The notes beneath the pieces were generated by a model. It saw nothing but the letters and a program-made list of their open reading frames with translations. It was not told the DNA's origin and searched no databases. This document shows, piece after piece, positions 38,737 through 58,505 of a stretch of DNA of 64,000 bases. The DNA comes from Deltaproteobacteria bacterium (GTDB lineage Bacteria; Myxococcota; Myxococcia; Myxococcales; 40CM-4-68-19), in NCBI GenBank assembly GCA_005879315.1, contig VBLC01000041.1, forward strand, positions 1-64,000, read 5' to 3'. The translations under genes were made by a program, and so were the position numbers. Every line of letters begins with the position of its first letter. Position 1 is the stretch's first letter.

Positions 38737-45978
<7,242 letters not shown>

Positions 45979-52591: not shown

Positions 52592-54979
52592 CTACACGCG
52601 CAGCTGTTTGCTCGCCGGCTTGCTGTGCGGAACGTAGAACTTTTCCTTGCCGAACTTCATGACCAGCCGCACCTCCAGCGAGATCGAGTTGAGCTCAGGG
52701 TTCCACATTTCGCTCATTGGTCCATCGGGAAGCTCAAACTCGACGGTCAGCGGTTTAGTGGTCATCGACACGCTCGGGCGCACCTTGAACATCCGCTCTC
52801 CTTCGGGGACCACTTCGAACTTGCTCGCCTTCACCGCTGGCGGCTTGCCCTCCCCGGCCGCCTCGATGGTCGCCTTGTCGGTCAGATCCCGGGAATCGCC
52901 GGCGCTCGACCATTTTTCGATGTAGTGGAGGTCGAAGGACGCCCGTGAGGGCATGAACCCCATCTTCAACTCGGCCTCGCGCGGATCGGATCCTGCCTCG
53001 ATCTCAAATTTGGAGATCAAGTTGAGCAACGCCCGGAATTGCTCGTCGTAGTCGTCCAGGGACTCGGCGTCGTGTTTCCAGTCCGAGATTTTCCTGGTCG
53101 CCCACTCGGGTGTGAAGTTGCCTTCGCCATACAGCTCTCCCCAACAGCAATGCTTGACGTAGGTCTCGTAATCATTGTCGCGGAACATGCTCAAGAGGTG
53201 GCCGAGGGCCACGAGCAGGAGACCAGCGACCAGGAAAACCTGCGCGCCGGGCACTGCCAGGAGCGCGGCCAGACCCCAGACGGCGGTCGCGGCCGAGCCC
53301 GTCAGGGTGAGATACCCACCGGCGATCGCCTGGCTGTTGTCGCCTTTCTCGTAGGATTCGAGCAACTCATGGCCCGCGATGTAGGTCTCGATGCAGCCCG
53401 AGAGGAAGCCGATCGCCCCGATCGCCCGCTCGGAGACCTTGGCCAGCGAAAGGGCCGCGCTTGTGGAATCGAGCGAGAATTCCAGGAACTCAAGAAGCGC
53501 GATCTTCTGCTTCTCGATGTCCTCGCCTTTCATCGCTTCGATGAGGTCGTGGATGGCGAAGGCCATGTTGATGGCCTCGACGACCACCAGGACCTTGGTG
53601 GCGGCTCCTCTCCACCTGCCCTCGGATTCGAGCTCCTTTTCCCGATGCTCGATCTTCTCGAACTCCAGGATCTCGTAGTGCTGTCCCTTGACGACCTTCG
53701 TGTCGAAGACGGCGCCTGGCTCGCCCTCGTCTCTGGCCCAGTCGATCGGGCGCTGAACTCTCTTGAGCCGGATGTCCCAATGGAGCTTCATCGTCTTGAC
53801 GACGTACTCGACCGATTCGACCTTGCCCAGCTTGACCACCAGGATGGCCGGCCACTCCTTGAACGCCTCCAGCCACGCGCTCGCGGCCTTGCGGACGACA
53901 TTCTTGACCTCGGACGCCTCGATCTCCCTCGGGGAAAAGTACGCGTGGAAAAAATGAGCCTGGTCATCGAATATCTTGCCGAGCAATTTGCGACCGCAGA
54001 TCGACTCGCTCAGGCGCGTGATGCAAAGGCACCACGGGACAAAGTACTTGAGGAGCTCCTTGGGTTTCGCCAGGAACTCTTTTTCCACCAGCTTCATCGG
54101 CCAGGCGTCCAGCCAGTTGCAGAGGTATGAGCACCACCGATCGCGCCAGGAGGTCCGCGCATTGATCTGCCCGTCGTACTCCTTGAGGAAGTTGTCGATC
54201 GCCGATTGGTCGAGCCGGTTTTTGTTGCGATCGTAAAGCAGGTTGACCAAGGAGTTGGCCGGGTCGCCGTCGACCACGGCCTTGAGCACGCGGGCGAGGA
54301 GCACCTTCTTCTGTCGCCGGACCACCTCCTTCTGGTGCGGCTGCGTCTGATGCTTCTCGGTGGTCGTGTAATTGATCAGATCGTCCGCGGCCGCCACGTA
54401 GTACTCGTGCAGGTGCATGGCCACCGTGATCGGATCGAGCACCGGCACGAGGAGCTCATCGTGGCCAGGAATGACATTGGGGTCGTTCTCCTCGAAGGTC
54501 TGGTGCGGAACGTAATCCTGGACGTGCTTTTGCAGCTCGTCGATGGCCTTCAACGAGAGAGGGATGCGGGAGGCGAAGAAGTACCAGGTCAACACGTGCC
54601 CGTTGACCCGGCGCGGGAAGGAGATCCTTTGGCCGATCGGGACGCCCGCGGGCCGCTTGTCAGGCTCGACTCGCTTGCTCGGGTCGACCCGCGAAGGGTC
54701 CATCGGCGTAGCGGAGAGATCGCCCCCCGGCCCGCGATGCAGCTCTTCCCACCAGATCGCCACGCCCTGCACGTTGATATAGCTGCGGAACGCGTAGATC
54801 CATCGCTCGCCCTCGATCTCCTTCCAGGCGCCAGACCTGTCCTTGGTGAGGCCGAAAGGACGAAGATGTTTGGGCTCGGTGCCGCGCGCCTCGTACATCT
54901 TCCATTCGACGAATCGCACCGGCTTGGTGAAGACCGCGCAGGCCTCGTCGTACGCTTTCTTGAGGACCGGATCGCTCAT
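52592..54979 (-). CDS. Large protein with hydrophobic hairpin; candidate pore-forming or T6SS-type toxin
   Basis: 795 aa, no signal peptide, no family recognised. The N-terminal 450 residues are mixed and Trp/Tyr/Lys-rich. A helix near 460-475 (KVLVVVEAINMAFAI) and a long hydrophobic hairpin about 550-600 (GSAATAVWGLAALLAVPGAQ, then VFLVAGLLLVALGHLL) are embedded between charged segments, like colicin or VasX-type pore formers. The C-terminal 120 residues look beta-rich. The ATG overlaps the upstream gene stop (ATGA). Local GC is visibly lower than the flanks. Last gene of a three-gene operon. The toxin role is inferred. Confidence 0.55.
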   Translation of the reverse strand: MSDPVLKKAYDEACAVFTKPVRFVEWKMYEARGTEPKHLRPFGLTKDRSGAWKEIEGERWIYAFRSYINVQGVAIWWEELHRGPGGDLSATPMDPSRVDPSKRVEPDKRPAGVPIGQRISFPRRVNGHVLTWYFFASRIPLSLKAIDELQKHVQDYVPHQTFEENDPNVIPGHDELLVPVLDPITVAMHLHEYYVAAADDLINYTTTEKHQTQPHQKEVVRRQKKVLLARVLKAVVDGDPANSLVNLLYDRNKNRLDQSAIDNFLKEYDGQINARTSWRDRWCSYLCNWLDAWPMKLVEKEFLAKPKELLKYFVPWCLCITRLSESICGRKLLGKIFDDQAHFFHAYFSPREIEASEVKNVVRKAASAWLEAFKEWPAILVVKLGKVESVEYVVKTMKLHWDIRLKRVQRPIDWARDEGEPGAVFDTKVVKGQHYEILEFEKIEHREKELESEGRWRGAATKVLVVVEAINMAFAIHDLIEAMKGEDIEKQKIALLEFLEFSLDSTSAALSLAKVSERAIGAIGFLSGCIETYIAGHELLESYEKGDNSQAIAGGYLTLTGSAATAVWGLAALLAVPGAQVFLVAGLLLVALGHLLSMFRDNDYETYVKHCCWGELYGEGNFTPEWATRKISDWKHDAESLDDYDEQFRALLNLISKFEIEAGSDPREAELKMGFMPSRASFDLHYIEKWSSAGDSRDLTDKATIEAAGEGKPPAVKASKFEVVPEGERMFKVRPSVSMTTKPLTVEFELPDGPMSEMWNPELNSISLEVRLVMKFGKEKFYVPHSKPASKQLRV

Positions 54980-55446
54980 GAGGTCCTCGGCTCCAGAACC
55001 TCGATCTTCGTGTAGTCCGGCGGCCCGAAAGCGTGGTCCTGCAGATCCCAGTCCTTGGGCTCAGGGACTGGCTGGATGATGAAGAAGTAGTACTTCGGGA
55101 GGACGTCCGGCGGCCGCTCGTCCTTTGTGACCAGCTCCAGCGTCGGGATGTTGTGGAAGATGGTGCTCCTCGCTTTTCCACCGTGCTCCTGAGCGAGCGT
55201 GTAGACCGTCTTCAGTTTCACGTTGTCGAAGGTGATCGATTTGTGATGTTGGCCGAGGGGAACCGCGTCGTGGGACGTCTTTCTCATCACCGCGCCCGCG
55301 CTCGATTCGAGGACCAATTTGTCGCCGTCCTGGAGAGGCAGATCGAGAACTACAATGACGCTCCGCCGCGACGGGATGATCCCGATGGTGGTCCCCGGTC
55401 GCGGCCCGACCGCGGTTTTCGCATTCACCTTCTTGTTTCCGTTCAC
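54976..55446 (-). CDS. Small beta-rich protein of the effector-like operon
   Basis: 156 aa from GTG 55446. Alternating hydrophobic strands (IGIIPSRRSVIVVLDLPLQD; KLVLESSAG; PKYYFFIIQPVPEPKDW) suggest a beta-sandwich. No signal peptide and no recognised family. Overlaps both neighbours by 4 nt (GTGA and ATGA), so all three proteins are coupled. It could be a chaperone/adaptor, an immunity protein or a structural partner. Confidence 0.6.
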   Translation of the reverse strand: MNGNKKVNAKTAVGPRPGTTIGIIPSRRSVIVVLDLPLQDGDKLVLESSAGAVMRKTSHDAVPLGQHHKSITFDNVKLKTVYTLAQEHGGKARSTIFHNIPTLELVTKDERPPDVLPKYYFFIIQPVPEPKDWDLQDHAFGPPDYTKIEVLEPRTS

Positions 55447-58400
55447 GGCCGCTCCTGCACTCTGGTCTGGTCGTAGAAGGTGATGGCCTGTTCGCGCAGG
55501 CTGAACACGTGCTCGCCCGCCCGGACCTTGCAGTAGACCGGCCGGGGCGACCGGAGCAGGTTCTGGTCTGCGGTGAGCGCGTGCGGATCGAAGGCCACCG
55601 CGAAGCCCGAGTTGGCCACCTTGACCTTGTCGAAGTGCAGCTCCTGGTCGAGCTCGGGCGCGCCGGTGGCGAGGATGGCGTAGAAAGTCACCTGCAGTTC
55701 GCTCCCATCGTCGATGTTGAGAACGCGGCCCGCCAGCAGCGGATGATCGTTGATGTGCGCGGTTCTCTGCGACCAGGTGGCGAGGATGCGCTTCTCCTTC
55801 TCCTGCGCGCTCGGCTCCGGCTCCACGTTCTTCTCGCCTTTCCAGATCGACCACAGGTAGCCGAGCTGCTTGCCGCGGAACGCTTGCAAACCCTCGTATT
55901 GGCCGTCCTCGCGGCGGAAGACGATGCGCTCCGCGTGGATCGCCTCGCCCGCCGTCAGCGAGCCGAGCTTCTTGCCCGAAGGCTCGAACTTACTCCGATC
56001 CCATGAGGCGAAGAACCCAGGATGCTGCCCCTTCTTCACGCGCATGGGCAGGCCCAGGTGCGGATCGGGAACCAGGTCGCTGCCGTTGAAGGTCTGCCTG
56101 CCGGGCGCGTCACCCGGCATGAGCGTGGGAGGCGCGTTGGTGTCGTTCACCGCGACGACCAGTTCCTCCTCGCCCACCACCGACTGATCGACGGAGATCT
56201 CGATCTCCTTCTCGCGCACCGCTTCGATGGGCACCAGCAGTGTCCCCGCTGCGTCGGTCGTGCCTTGGTAGACGACGCTCCCGTCCACCTTCACTTGCAA
56301 CTCGGCTTTTGCGACGGGCCCGTTCGCATCGCGCAAGAGGAGCGTCACGTCTTCGTCGGGATGGAGGCGATCGTCCTTCTCGATTCTCCTCGACCCCTTG
56401 GCGTCGGGCGCGACCTCCGCGTGCGCCATCAGTCGCAGCGCGGTGACGGGATGGACGAAGATTGCTTTTCCCTCCTGGGGGAAGTCGTCGGCCTGCGCCA
56501 GGTCCTTCCAGAAGACGAAGAGCTGCGCGTTCTTCTTGAACTCCTCTCGCTCCTTGTCGGTGTGCGATTTGTGCCGCTCGTGTTGGAGGAACTTGTCCAG
56601 ATCGAGGGCGAACTCGGTGAGGCCTTTGACTGCCTGGTAGCGCGAGCGCCAGCACTCGACTGGCGTCCGGTAGAAGTGGCGCACCTCGCCCGGCGCGGGA
56701 ATGCCGTGCGGCATCTTGCCGATGGTCTTCTTCTGAGGGTCGAGCGCCTCGATCAGCTTCTGGGTGTGCAAGACGTCGCCGCGCTCCTCGCTCAGGTCGA
56801 GCTCGTTCAGCTTCACCTCGTCCTTGGCGCCGAATTCCTTCTCTGGCAGGGGTCCCACGGGGAAGACCGCGTCCTTGGAGAACACCGACCAGTGCACCAG
56901 CGGCGACCCCAAATAGTCACCCGCGATCCCGACGGGCTCTCCCGCCTCCACCGTCCATCGGCGCTTGCCGTCCTTCTTGTCGGCGTCGAGGATCGCGACC
57001 TTGCCGTCCTTGAGCGCGGCGATCGCCTGGCTCCTCCTGGCGGCTGCCTCCAGGTCGAAGTCGGCCCAGGCGGACAGTTCCTTCGCCTGCGCGCTGCCGT
57101 CCTGGGCGATCTTGATCCACTGGCCCTCGAGCTTGACGTACAGACCGTTGTCCTCGACGGTGCGGTCCTCCTCTTCGTAGAGGCCTGCCGCGAGCCATTG
57201 ATCGTTCTGCAAGTTGACCGGCGAGAACCTGCCTTTGTCTTCGTCCTTCCAGGTGGGCGCGTCGGCCATCACCCGCCACTTCGGCTTGCTGGCATCGGGC
57301 CCGTCGGTCAGGAGCCGGCGCAGCCAGCCCGCTTGGGTGCGGTCGGGATGGAGCGGTTCGCGCTGCAGATGCACGAAGAGGCTGAAGATCGACTTGTTGG
57401 CCTCCAGCGGATGGCGGAGGAGCACGAAGCCGGTGTCGCCCCAGGGATGGCCACCCGGCCCCGCCCCGATACGCGCCGCCACGACCTCACCGCGCGCGAT
57501 GGCGCAGATGGGCTTGCCACGATCGACCATGAGATCGGTGCCGCTGTGGAACTGTCCTGCGCTGCCCAAGGGGAACGCGCCGTGCAGCCCGCGCTCGCTG
57601 GCCTGATAGAGCGACTCCAGCGCCTGGGCAGTGACCGTCTGCGACTTGTTGATTTCAAATGGAAGGCGGCTGGCGCTGGTGCGGTCGATCTTGTGCACCA
57701 CTTCCTTGTCGTCGTCGACCTTCTGATCGGTGACGTAGAAGTAGCGGCCGATCTTGTCCATCTCCATGTAGCTGAGAAGCCGCTTCCCCTCGCTTTTGGG
57801 ATGGGTCTCGAGCAGCCGTCTGGCGCGCACCCAGTACTCGGAAAAGGAGGAGGGCTTCTGCTGCACCAACCGCAGATTTGACTCGCCCAGAAGCATGACG
57901 TTCGGGTTGGCGGGGTCGGTGATGCGCAGCCAGAGATCGCCATCCTGTTTCTTCCAGCCGGAGATGACGACGACGTGTCCGCCGTTCTTGCTGTTGGCGA
58001 GGCGGGTGTAGATGAGCACCGGGTTGTTGGCGTTGATCGCCTCGATGATGGGGTAAAAGCGCTTGTCCACTTCGGGGCGATCCGTGCTGATCGTGTCTTT
58101 GGGCGACTTCTGCAGATAGCTTTCCTGCAGCTTCCATCCCATCTTGTCGAAGAGCTGGGACAGATCGCAGCGGCCGTTGTCGGAGAGCGCCGCAATCGCA
58201 TCGGAGTTGGAGCCGCCCAGCCAGCGCAGGTTGTCGGCGTATTTGCCGACGGCGCCGGGGCCGGCCTTGCCGGTCTTGTGGCCGATGTACTCGGAGGTCT
58301 TGCCCAGCGCCTTGCAGTAGTAGTTGTAGAGCGTGGCCGCCGAGGTGCGGCCGCTCCACAGCCAGCTGTCGGCGAGCCCGTTGTAGTCGGGCAAGCGCGG

Positions 58401-58505
58401 GACATCGAGCCAGCGGCCCGCCGTGCCAGTGCGGTCCGGCTCCTCCATCCTGTCGGGTGTGCGAATCCCGTCGTCGGGATGGATGGGCAGTGACGGTGAA
58501 GCCAC
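55443..58505 (-). CDS. C39-like/M23 peptidase fusion protein, candidate effector
   Basis: 1020 aa, no Sec signal. Residues about 35-200 look like a C39-type papain fold with His in GGHVVVISGW (about 177) and Asp in ITDPANPN, but the nucleophile position reads SWLWSGRTS: Ser instead of Cys. Residues about 300-400 are an M23/LytM zinc endopeptidase (FHSGTDLMV, then LFVHLQ). A beta-sandwich (LLLRDANGPVAKAELQVKVD, about 710-770) and a second beta-rich region follow. GTG start with AGGGGGGAT upstream. First gene of the operon. It could cleave peptidoglycan cross-links, and delivery without a signal suggests secretion by a contact system. Confidence 0.8.
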   Translation of the reverse strand: MASPSLPIHPDDGIRTPDRMEEPDRTGTAGRWLDVPRLPDYNGLADSWLWSGRTSAATLYNYYCKALGKTSEYIGHKTGKAGPGAVGKYADNLRWLGGSNSDAIAALSDNGRCDLSQLFDKMGWKLQESYLQKSPKDTISTDRPEVDKRFYPIIEAINANNPVLIYTRLANSKNGGHVVVISGWKKQDGDLWLRITDPANPNVMLLGESNLRLVQQKPSSFSEYWVRARRLLETHPKSEGKRLLSYMEMDKIGRYFYVTDQKVDDDKEVVHKIDRTSASRLPFEINKSQTVTAQALESLYQASERGLHGAFPLGSAGQFHSGTDLMVDRGKPICAIARGEVVAARIGAGPGGHPWGDTGFVLLRHPLEANKSIFSLFVHLQREPLHPDRTQAGWLRRLLTDGPDASKPKWRVMADAPTWKDEDKGRFSPVNLQNDQWLAAGLYEEEDRTVEDNGLYVKLEGQWIKIAQDGSAQAKELSAWADFDLEAAARRSQAIAALKDGKVAILDADKKDGKRRWTVEAGEPVGIAGDYLGSPLVHWSVFSKDAVFPVGPLPEKEFGAKDEVKLNELDLSEERGDVLHTQKLIEALDPQKKTIGKMPHGIPAPGEVRHFYRTPVECWRSRYQAVKGLTEFALDLDKFLQHERHKSHTDKEREEFKKNAQLFVFWKDLAQADDFPQEGKAIFVHPVTALRLMAHAEVAPDAKGSRRIEKDDRLHPDEDVTLLLRDANGPVAKAELQVKVDGSVVYQGTTDAAGTLLVPIEAVREKEIEISVDQSVVGEEELVVAVNDTNAPPTLMPGDAPGRQTFNGSDLVPDPHLGLPMRVKKGQHPGFFASWDRSKFEPSGKKLGSLTAGEAIHAERIVFRREDGQYEGLQAFRGKQLGYLWSIWKGEKNVEPEPSAQEKEKRILATWSQRTAHINDHPLLAGRVLNIDDGSELQVTFYAILATGAPELDQELHFDKVKVANSGFAVAFDPHALTADQNLLRSPRPVYCKVRAGEHVFSLREQAITFYDQTRVQERP

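What the first reader, a model, noticed from the sequence alone, without database searches (positions are those of the whole stretch)
52592..58505. Three-gene, translationally coupled, low-GC operon: peptidase fusion, small beta protein, hydrophobic-hairpin protein
The genes overlap by GTGA and ATGA, so the proteins are probably made together. None has a Sec signal, yet one is an M23-type cell-wall endopeptidase and another carries a hydrophobic hairpin like pore formers. Local GC is lower than the flanks (57% in one 60-base sample at 53101-53160). This fits a horizontally acquired antibacterial effector/toxin module. I see no VgrG, PAAR or classical immunity gene, so it may be an undescribed architecture.
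Basis: partly seen in the sequence, partly recalled or inferred. Interest (0 to 1): 0.75.

Follow-up and report, generated by a model that had tools for sequence, protein, structure and literature searches.

The report
Orphan cell-wall and pore toxin operon
A relative of the myxobacteria carries three coupled genes for a peptidase-like cell-wall protein, a small orphan protein and a pore-former-like protein of the type VI secretion kind, although no type VI sheath gene was found in its genome, which instead has a phage-tail-like injection machine that may be what delivers them.

Summary
In detail: three minus-strand ORFs at 52592-58505, joined by ATGA and GTGA overlaps, no signal-like N-termini, GC 63.1% against 68.2% for the rest of the window. 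Gene 1 is a papain/C39-like plus M23-like protein with relatives in 18 of 195 genomes of the phylum (own included); candidate active sites are changed (C39 Cys to Ser; first His of the M23 HxH motif missing wherever read). Gene 3 is a remote but solid relative of BTH_I2691/VasX-type T6SS pore-formers (0 of 200 shuffles reach its score), without a MIX hit. Gene 2 has no convincing relative.

TssC was found in 0 of 12 family genomes; this genome has an extracellular contractile injection system (eCIS) and an orphan spike-PAAR pair. Gene-1 relatives sit in one chromosomal slot in 6 family genomes and are absent there in 5; in one of those 5 they form a hydrolase array near the eCIS. Such M23 proteins lie within 16 kb of a sheath gene in 3 genomes (0.13 expected).

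Best reading: an antibacterial effector module, perhaps delivered in trans by the eCIS (moderate confidence). Self-lysis for particle release is the main rival. The three-gene set was seen once.

The parts
55443..58505 (-). Gene 1 (P0001), 1020 aa: papain/C39-like region, M23-like region split by an insertion, Ig-like and other probable beta regions
   Evidence: ORF and translation; PF13529 E 1.3e-3 and PF01551 E 8e-5, both below cut-off; of 12 aligned family rows M23 matches 7 and C39_2 matches 6 at E up to 0.1
57933..58079 (-). Pfam C39-like match, residues 143-191; the candidate Cys position upstream is Ser51 (WSGRT, codon 58353-58355)
57360..57554 (-). Pfam M23 match, residues 318-382: HxxxD at 320-324 and His379; the third candidate zinc ligand His538 is at 56892-56894
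54976..55446 (-). Gene 2 (P0002), 156 aa, orphan small protein; overlaps gene 1 by GTGA
52592..54979 (-). Gene 3 (P0003), 795 aa, with a hydrophobic hairpin; overlaps gene 2 by ATGA
52895..53587 (-). Region of gene 3 (residues 465-695) matched by a profile of five other BTH_I2691-like proteins of the phylum built without P0003
   Evidence: 45.0 bits, E 2.3e-13 among 665 sequences
53177..53287 (-). Hydrophobic hairpin of gene 3, residues 565-601

Best explanation
The operon encodes an antibacterial effector module: a large peptidoglycan-directed protein (gene 1), a small partner (gene 2, role unknown: adaptor or immunity) and a pore-former of the BTH_I2691/VasX type (gene 3). Lacking export signals, the proteins are most probably delivered by the genome's eCIS, with its own spike or the orphan spike-PAAR pair, so that the pore-former depolarises the target membrane while gene 1 binds or cuts peptidoglycan. 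Shown here: the genes, their homologies, no TssC match, an eCIS, and an excess of gene-1-type M23 proteins near contractile sheaths in three genomes. Inferred: toxicity, loading, delivery, target.
For: Gene 3: NCBIfam BTH_I2691 E 5.9e-7; a profile of five relatives built without it gives 45.0 bits against a best of 6.1 among 200 regional shuffles, and 9.9 bits with the hairpin masked; a profile including P0003 matches Tke5 (9r8g) at E 0.009. Tke5's helical region suffices to kill (PMC12909789, abstract and sections 7 and 12 read). Gene-1 relatives stand in an array with C39_2, Amidase_2, glucosaminidase, M15 and M23 matches over cut-off and further M23 and CHAP matches below it. TssC: 0 of 12 family genomes; sheath: 9 of 12, and 7 of 7 of those at least 90% complete and at most 5% contaminated. 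Own eCIS: two sheaths, two gp19 tubes, a spike, a Pvc16-type protein, plus spike and PAAR on C113. Gene-1-type M23 proteins within 16 kb of a sheath in G026, G064 and G114; 0.13 expected, P 3e-4. The sister group f2 has a row in neither match list, gene 1 or sheath. Antibacterial eCIS-associated toxins, one a peptidoglycan hydrolase, are in print (PMC8213781, passages).
Against: The operon is not at the eCIS (C98 against C40), and no sequence link was found between its beta regions and eCIS proteins (112 targets). No Pfam match, DUF4157 included, in genes 2-3. Gene 1's candidate C39 Cys is Ser and its M23 site is non-canonical. No immunity gene recognised. All 11 genomes outside the family with gene-1-like hits also have TssC, so the family may be T6SS-linked by origin. 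Two of seven near-complete family genomes (G022, G027) have the eCIS and no gene-1 match. The distance threshold was chosen after seeing the data, and the G114 gene is an amidase-M23, not a C39-M23.
Confidence: 0.42

Rival explanations
1. Self-lysis module: peptidoglycan protein plus pore-former act like endolysin and holin inside the producer, releasing eCIS particles from a sacrificed subpopulation.
For: No signal-like N-termini and no recognised immunity gene; array near the eCIS in G026; weak PHROG endolysin and metallo-endopeptidase hits of gene 1 (E 0.03 and 0.014); the discussion of PMC8213781 suggests that such toxins may be made just before lysis (passage).
Against: The proteins are far larger than usual phage lysins (recalled) and carry Ig-like modules; no phage record matches gene 1; the characterised gene-3 relatives Tke5 and Ptx2 are exported effectors (PMC12909789).
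Confidence: 0.22
2. T6SS effector heritage: effectors inherited from T6SS-bearing ancestors, now used through another route (for example a Tad-like Kil apparatus) or decaying.
For: Outside the family 11 of 11 genomes with gene-1-like hits and 9 of 10 with BTH-like hits have TssC; in G064 a LysM-BTH protein lies next to a VgrG. A Tad-like killing apparatus of Myxococcus is in print (PMC8460266, search listing only).
Against: Long intact reading frames, 42-68% identity within the family and module exchange between genes argue for use, not decay. A Kil apparatus was not searched for.
Confidence: 0.2
3. Cell-wall binding or remodelling proteins of the producer without toxic role; gene 3 is a membrane protein of unrelated function.
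For: Changed active sites in gene 1; fixed chromosomal slot among genes that look housekeeping (names by eye).
Against: No export signal; presence/absence at the slot; similarity of gene 3 to pore-formers.
Confidence: 0.13

Closest known systems
BTH_I2691 family T6SS pore-formers (Tke5, Ptx2; VasX-type)
   Same: Hydrophobic hairpin with sequence similarity around it over residues 465-695
   Different: 28.4 bits against a cut-off of 150; no MIX or VasX_N Pfam hit; no VgrG-type OB domain on the contig; no TssC in the genome. DUF4123 adaptors were not searched.
M23 peptidases (lysostaphin, LytM)
   Same: HxxxD, a later His (His538) and a His in a YxHL-like position are present (roles of these positions in known enzymes are recalled)
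   Different: First His of HxH missing wherever read; HxxxH instead of HxxxD in most relatives; a long insertion splits the domain
eCIS-associated antibacterial toxins (Geller et al. 2021, PMC8213781)
   Same: Peptidoglycan hydrolysis and missing immunity genes are described there (passages)
   Different: This operon is not at the eCIS locus and has no DUF4157 match; words beginning with 'pore' or 'myxo' do not occur in that paper's main text
LysM fusions to a BTH_I2691-like region (in L075, L076; LysM-like in truncated L074)
   Same: Same pore-forming region
   Different: LysM N-terminus (2 of 6 members match PF01476); L075 lies beside a VgrG in a TssC-positive genome

Membership tests
BTH_I2691 family (NF041559) | Score above the curated cut-off | tested here: not met
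   28.4 of 150 bits; 0 of 195 genomes has a match over it
BTH_I2691 family (NF041559) | Sequence similarity over the TM/C-terminal region beyond chance | tested here: met
   45.0 bits, best of 200 shuffles 6.1; masked hairpin still 9.9 bits. The model also gave a sub-cut-off match in 1 of 14 control genomes, Methanosarcina
BTH_I2691 family (NF041559) | N-terminal MIX / VasX_N domain | tested here: not met
   No Pfam family at E up to 1
BTH_I2691 family (NF041559) | Fold as in Tke5 | tested here: inconclusive
   AlphaFold model mean pLDDT 35.2
T6SS effector | T6SS in the genome | tested here: not met
   VipB/TssC (the one T6SS core family searched) in 0 of 12 family genomes; the same search finds it in 76 of 195
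Peptidase M23 | Pfam gathering score | tested here: not met
   23.2 of 28.7 bits; 7 of 12 aligned family rows match at E up to 0.1
Peptidase M23 | HxxxD and HxH motifs | tested here: not met
   HxxxD present at 320-324 and His538 present, but first His of HxH replaced
Peptidase C39-like | Catalytic Cys | tested here: not met
   Ser51 in the window copy and Ser in L027_5779; Cys in the 11 other proteins where the motif was found
eCIS effector | Encoded in or beside an eCIS locus | tested here: not met
   Different contigs here (C98, C40); relatives within 16 kb of a sheath in 3 genomes
eCIS effector | Found in or on eCIS particles | not testable with these tools
   needs particle proteomics
Toxin-immunity pair | Adjacent immunity gene | tested here: inconclusive
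   Flanking genes are kept in genomes where the operon is absent; gene 2 could be one but has no relatives

The most novel reading that the evidence does not exclude
A lineage of Myxococcota without T6SS keeps an arsenal of shuffled peptidoglycan-hydrolase fusions and VasX-type pore-formers and fires them from an extracellular contractile injection system, so that one class of pore-forming toxin serves two different contractile machines.
Probability: 0.3. Interest if true: 0.68.

Novelty: new variant of a known kind. Interest (0 to 1): 0.5.

Why it matters
If the link holds, it would join VasX-type pore-formers, known as T6SS effectors, to eCIS delivery and to a mosaic set of cell-wall hydrolases, and would give eCIS of this group an antibacterial (perhaps predatory) role. 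The changed active sites also raise the question whether such large hydrolase-like proteins act as wall anchors for the partner toxin rather than as enzymes.

Tried and rejected
Structure prediction gave useless models: P0003 alone mean pLDDT 35.2, P0001 with five other rows 39.3, so no fold search was run. Profile comparison of the beta regions of genes 1-3 with 112 targets (own eCIS and spike-PAAR neighbourhoods, selected relatives, window genes as background) found nothing beyond self above 4.1% probability (one search forced global alignment and is disregarded). A weak phmmer hit of P0003 to the solved structure of nigritoxin (E 0.081) is not significant and was not followed. Lysostaphin hits of P0001 are marginal (E 0.016 and above); a profile of the family finds no PDB chain at 0.01. 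Viral contigs: no relative of gene 2 or 3 (gene 1 was not scanned there). PHROGs: weak hits for gene 1 only. Other gene-2 matches (best E 0.005 in G174, 29% over 101 residues) were judged chance. The first genome-contig scan with P0003 found nothing; the second, with a gene-1 alignment, found five loci, whose lengths, frames and homology agree with stretches already taken from G029, G020, G023 and G025. Plasmid and phage records hold no copy of gene 1; gene 3 was tried on plasmids only. Literature: contractile injection with myxobacteria/Myxococcota, peptidoglycan, effector or predation and BTH_I2691 or VasX terms: no listed title or abstract start describes this pairing; most subscription papers are not in that library. 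Not searched: T6SS core families other than TssC, PAAR and DUF4123 genome-wide, other secretion systems.
Full report
Observation. Three minus-strand ORFs stand at the stated coordinates and overlap by GTGA and ATGA. The 5.9 kb have GC 63.1% against 68.2% for the rest of the window; non-overlapping stretches of the same size have mean 68.0%, sd 1.3, minimum 65.0. Third-position GC of genes 1, 2 and 3 is 0.88, 0.82 and 0.85; the called flanking genes 38-40 and 44-47 have 0.84-0.92. A G-rich, ribosome-binding-like run precedes the first start.

Setting. The window lies on contig C98 of a 4.43 Mb, 125-contig genome, 97.55% complete. The records named are Deltaproteobacteria or Myxococcales MAGs, some with sampling depths in their titles; that the 195 genomes searched as 'phylum' are Myxococcota and that these are soil organisms is inference. 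Neighbour names used here (M16 peptidases, polyprenyl synthase, HMG-CoA reductase, DegP-like protease) are read by eye and come from no call.

Gene 1. P0001 matches Peptidase_M23 (8e-5) and Peptidase_C39_2 (1.3e-3), both below the curated scores. Of 12 aligned family rows (some are segments of one protein) M23 matches 7, C39_2 6 (best 1.5e-11), Peptidase_C70 4 and Big_1 1, at E up to 0.1. Relatives are found in 18 of 195 genomes: 7 of the 12 of its own family (f1, own included) and 11 outside, 10 in f6 and one in f27; several outside hits cover only the C39 or only the M23 part. The candidate C39 Cys is Ser51 in P0001 and Ser in L027_5779, but Cys in L030, L033, L035, L036, L037, L038 and L041-L045, 11 proteins. 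HxxxD is kept in P0001 and in L032, its closest relative (68% over 272-693); L030, L027_10300, L029, L033, L037 and the f6 proteins L041-L045 have HxxxH. L038 escaped the motif pattern, but its printed sequence shows HGGVH. The first His of HxH is missing wherever the motif was read, and His538 is invariant in the five-row alignment A3; one relative, L027_10300, also lacks the YxHL-type His. The roles of these positions in known M23 enzymes are recalled. Gene 1 is thus a variant, perhaps partly inactive, member of a hydrolase-like family.

Arrays and slot. In G026 a run of fusion proteins matches C39_2, Amidase_2, glucosaminidase, M15 and M23 over cut-off, and another M23 and a CHAP domain below it; a C-terminal module of about 270 residues is shared between genes at 69% identity. 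P0001 lacks a further stretch of about 350 residues and that module, which some relatives have. Near the HMG-CoA reductase/polyprenyl synthase genes a gene-1 relative lies in G000, G023, G024, G025, G029 and, judged by the polyprenyl synthase alone, G020; in the five relatives the contig ends inside the gene or array, so only one side is seen, and one or two other ORFs may stand between. In G019, G022, G027 and G028 the second M16 gene and the HMG-CoA reductase side are close together without such a gene; in G026 none follows within the 20 kb read, its array being on another contig. G021 gave no HMG-CoA reductase match. G020 has a second relative elsewhere (L032). This is an island with an old presence/absence history rather than a private recent gain.

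Gene 3. P0003 matches NCBIfam BTH_I2691 (T6SS effector) at 5.9e-7, but with 28.4 of 150 bits. The same model gave a sub-cut-off match in 1 of 14 control genomes (Methanosarcina), so I made a separate test: a profile of five other members, without P0003, matches P0003 at 45.0 bits over 465-695; the best of 200 shuffles done region by region has 6.1 bits; with the hairpin masked 9.9 bits remain, in two weak pieces. So much of the score, though not all, comes from the hairpin region. A profile that includes P0003 meets Tke5 (9r8g) at E 0.009. Tke5 has an N-terminal MIX domain, a helical region sufficient to kill and an Ig-like C-terminal region (PMC12909789: abstract, sections 7 and 12 read). P0003 has no MIX-like Pfam hit. 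In the phylum 12 of 195 genomes have model matches at E up to 1e-3, none over the cut-off; 9 of the 12 have TssC, the exceptions being G000, G026 and G155. In G064 a LysM-BTH protein lies next to a VgrG.

Gene 2. No Pfam, NCBIfam or PHROG match, no viral relative, no match in the other 11 family genomes; 5 other genomes of the 195 reach E 0.1, best 0.005 in G174.

Delivery. TssC is found in 0 of 12 family genomes; sheath genes in 9 of 12, and in 7 of 7 that are at least 90% complete and at most 5% contaminated; 5 of these 7 have a gene-1 match, G022 and G027 do not. The own genome has an eCIS on C40 with two sheaths, two gp19-type tubes, a spike and a Pvc16-type protein, and on C113 a spike with a nearby PAAR protein. 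The sister group f2 has no row in the match lists for gene 1 or sheath, though six f2 genomes have TssC. Outside f1, 11 of 11 genomes with gene-1-like hits have TssC and 9 of 11 a sheath. On the same contig, gene-1-type M23 proteins lie about 16.0 kb (G026, from the start of the array to the sheath match; 8.7 kb from the spike gene), 11.0 kb (G064) and 2.9 kb (G114) from a sheath. In G114 an Amidase_2 protein whose M23 part is seen by similarity and by the HGGVH motif, not by Pfam, and a partner that looks like a lipoprotein precede an eCIS-like operon with sheath, tube, spike and baseplate J. For the 15 genomes that have both kinds of match, 0.13 such pairs are expected within 16 kb (P 3e-4) and 0.20 within 25 kb (P 1e-3) (my count of loci per genome). 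Weak points: the distance was chosen after the fact; in most of the other 12 genomes the two lie on different contigs of drafts, so closeness cannot be judged; the place list is cut; sheath hits may include prophages; and G114's gene differs in architecture.

Judgement. The most economical reading is an effector module whose nearest characterised pore-former works by T6SS, in a lineage that has an eCIS and no TssC match. Delivery by the eCIS is an inference with moderate support; self-lysis for eCIS release and an inherited T6SS repertoire used by another route remain open. eCIS-associated antibacterial toxins, most of them without a recognised immunity gene, are described (PMC8213781, passages only), so the kind is known; the pairing, the T6SS-type pore-former in a TssC-free genome and the variant active sites are what seems new. 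The exact three-gene set was seen in one genome only.

Noticed in passing
G000:C113 (L049:14842-17058): Orphan eCIS-type spike gene followed by a PAAR protein with a C-terminal extension, away from the eCIS locus on C40.
   Followed up: partly
L075:9259-13671 (G064): LysM-type N-terminus fused to a BTH_I2691-like pore-forming region, next to a VgrG gene; L076 and the truncated L074 look alike.
   Followed up: partly
L101:12853-17161 (G114): Amidase plus variant M23 protein and a lipoprotein-like partner (by eye) ahead of an eCIS-like operon: a candidate toxin-immunity pair.
   Followed up: partly
L087:2604-5363 (G029): 919-residue fusion of Amidase_2 with a C39-like part similar to L027_5779 and an NlpC/P60-like part (by eye).
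   Followed up: no
L048:6047-12115; L052:10340-19999 and L053:3-3380: Very large ORFs inside the eCIS clusters (2022 codons here; 3220 and 1125 codons on the two sides of a fetch boundary in G026); the first has only one sub-cut-off Pfam match.
   Followed up: no
window 38737-45978: 2413-codon ORF in a stretch with AT skew of 0.14-0.29 from 39 to 46 kb.
   Followed up: no
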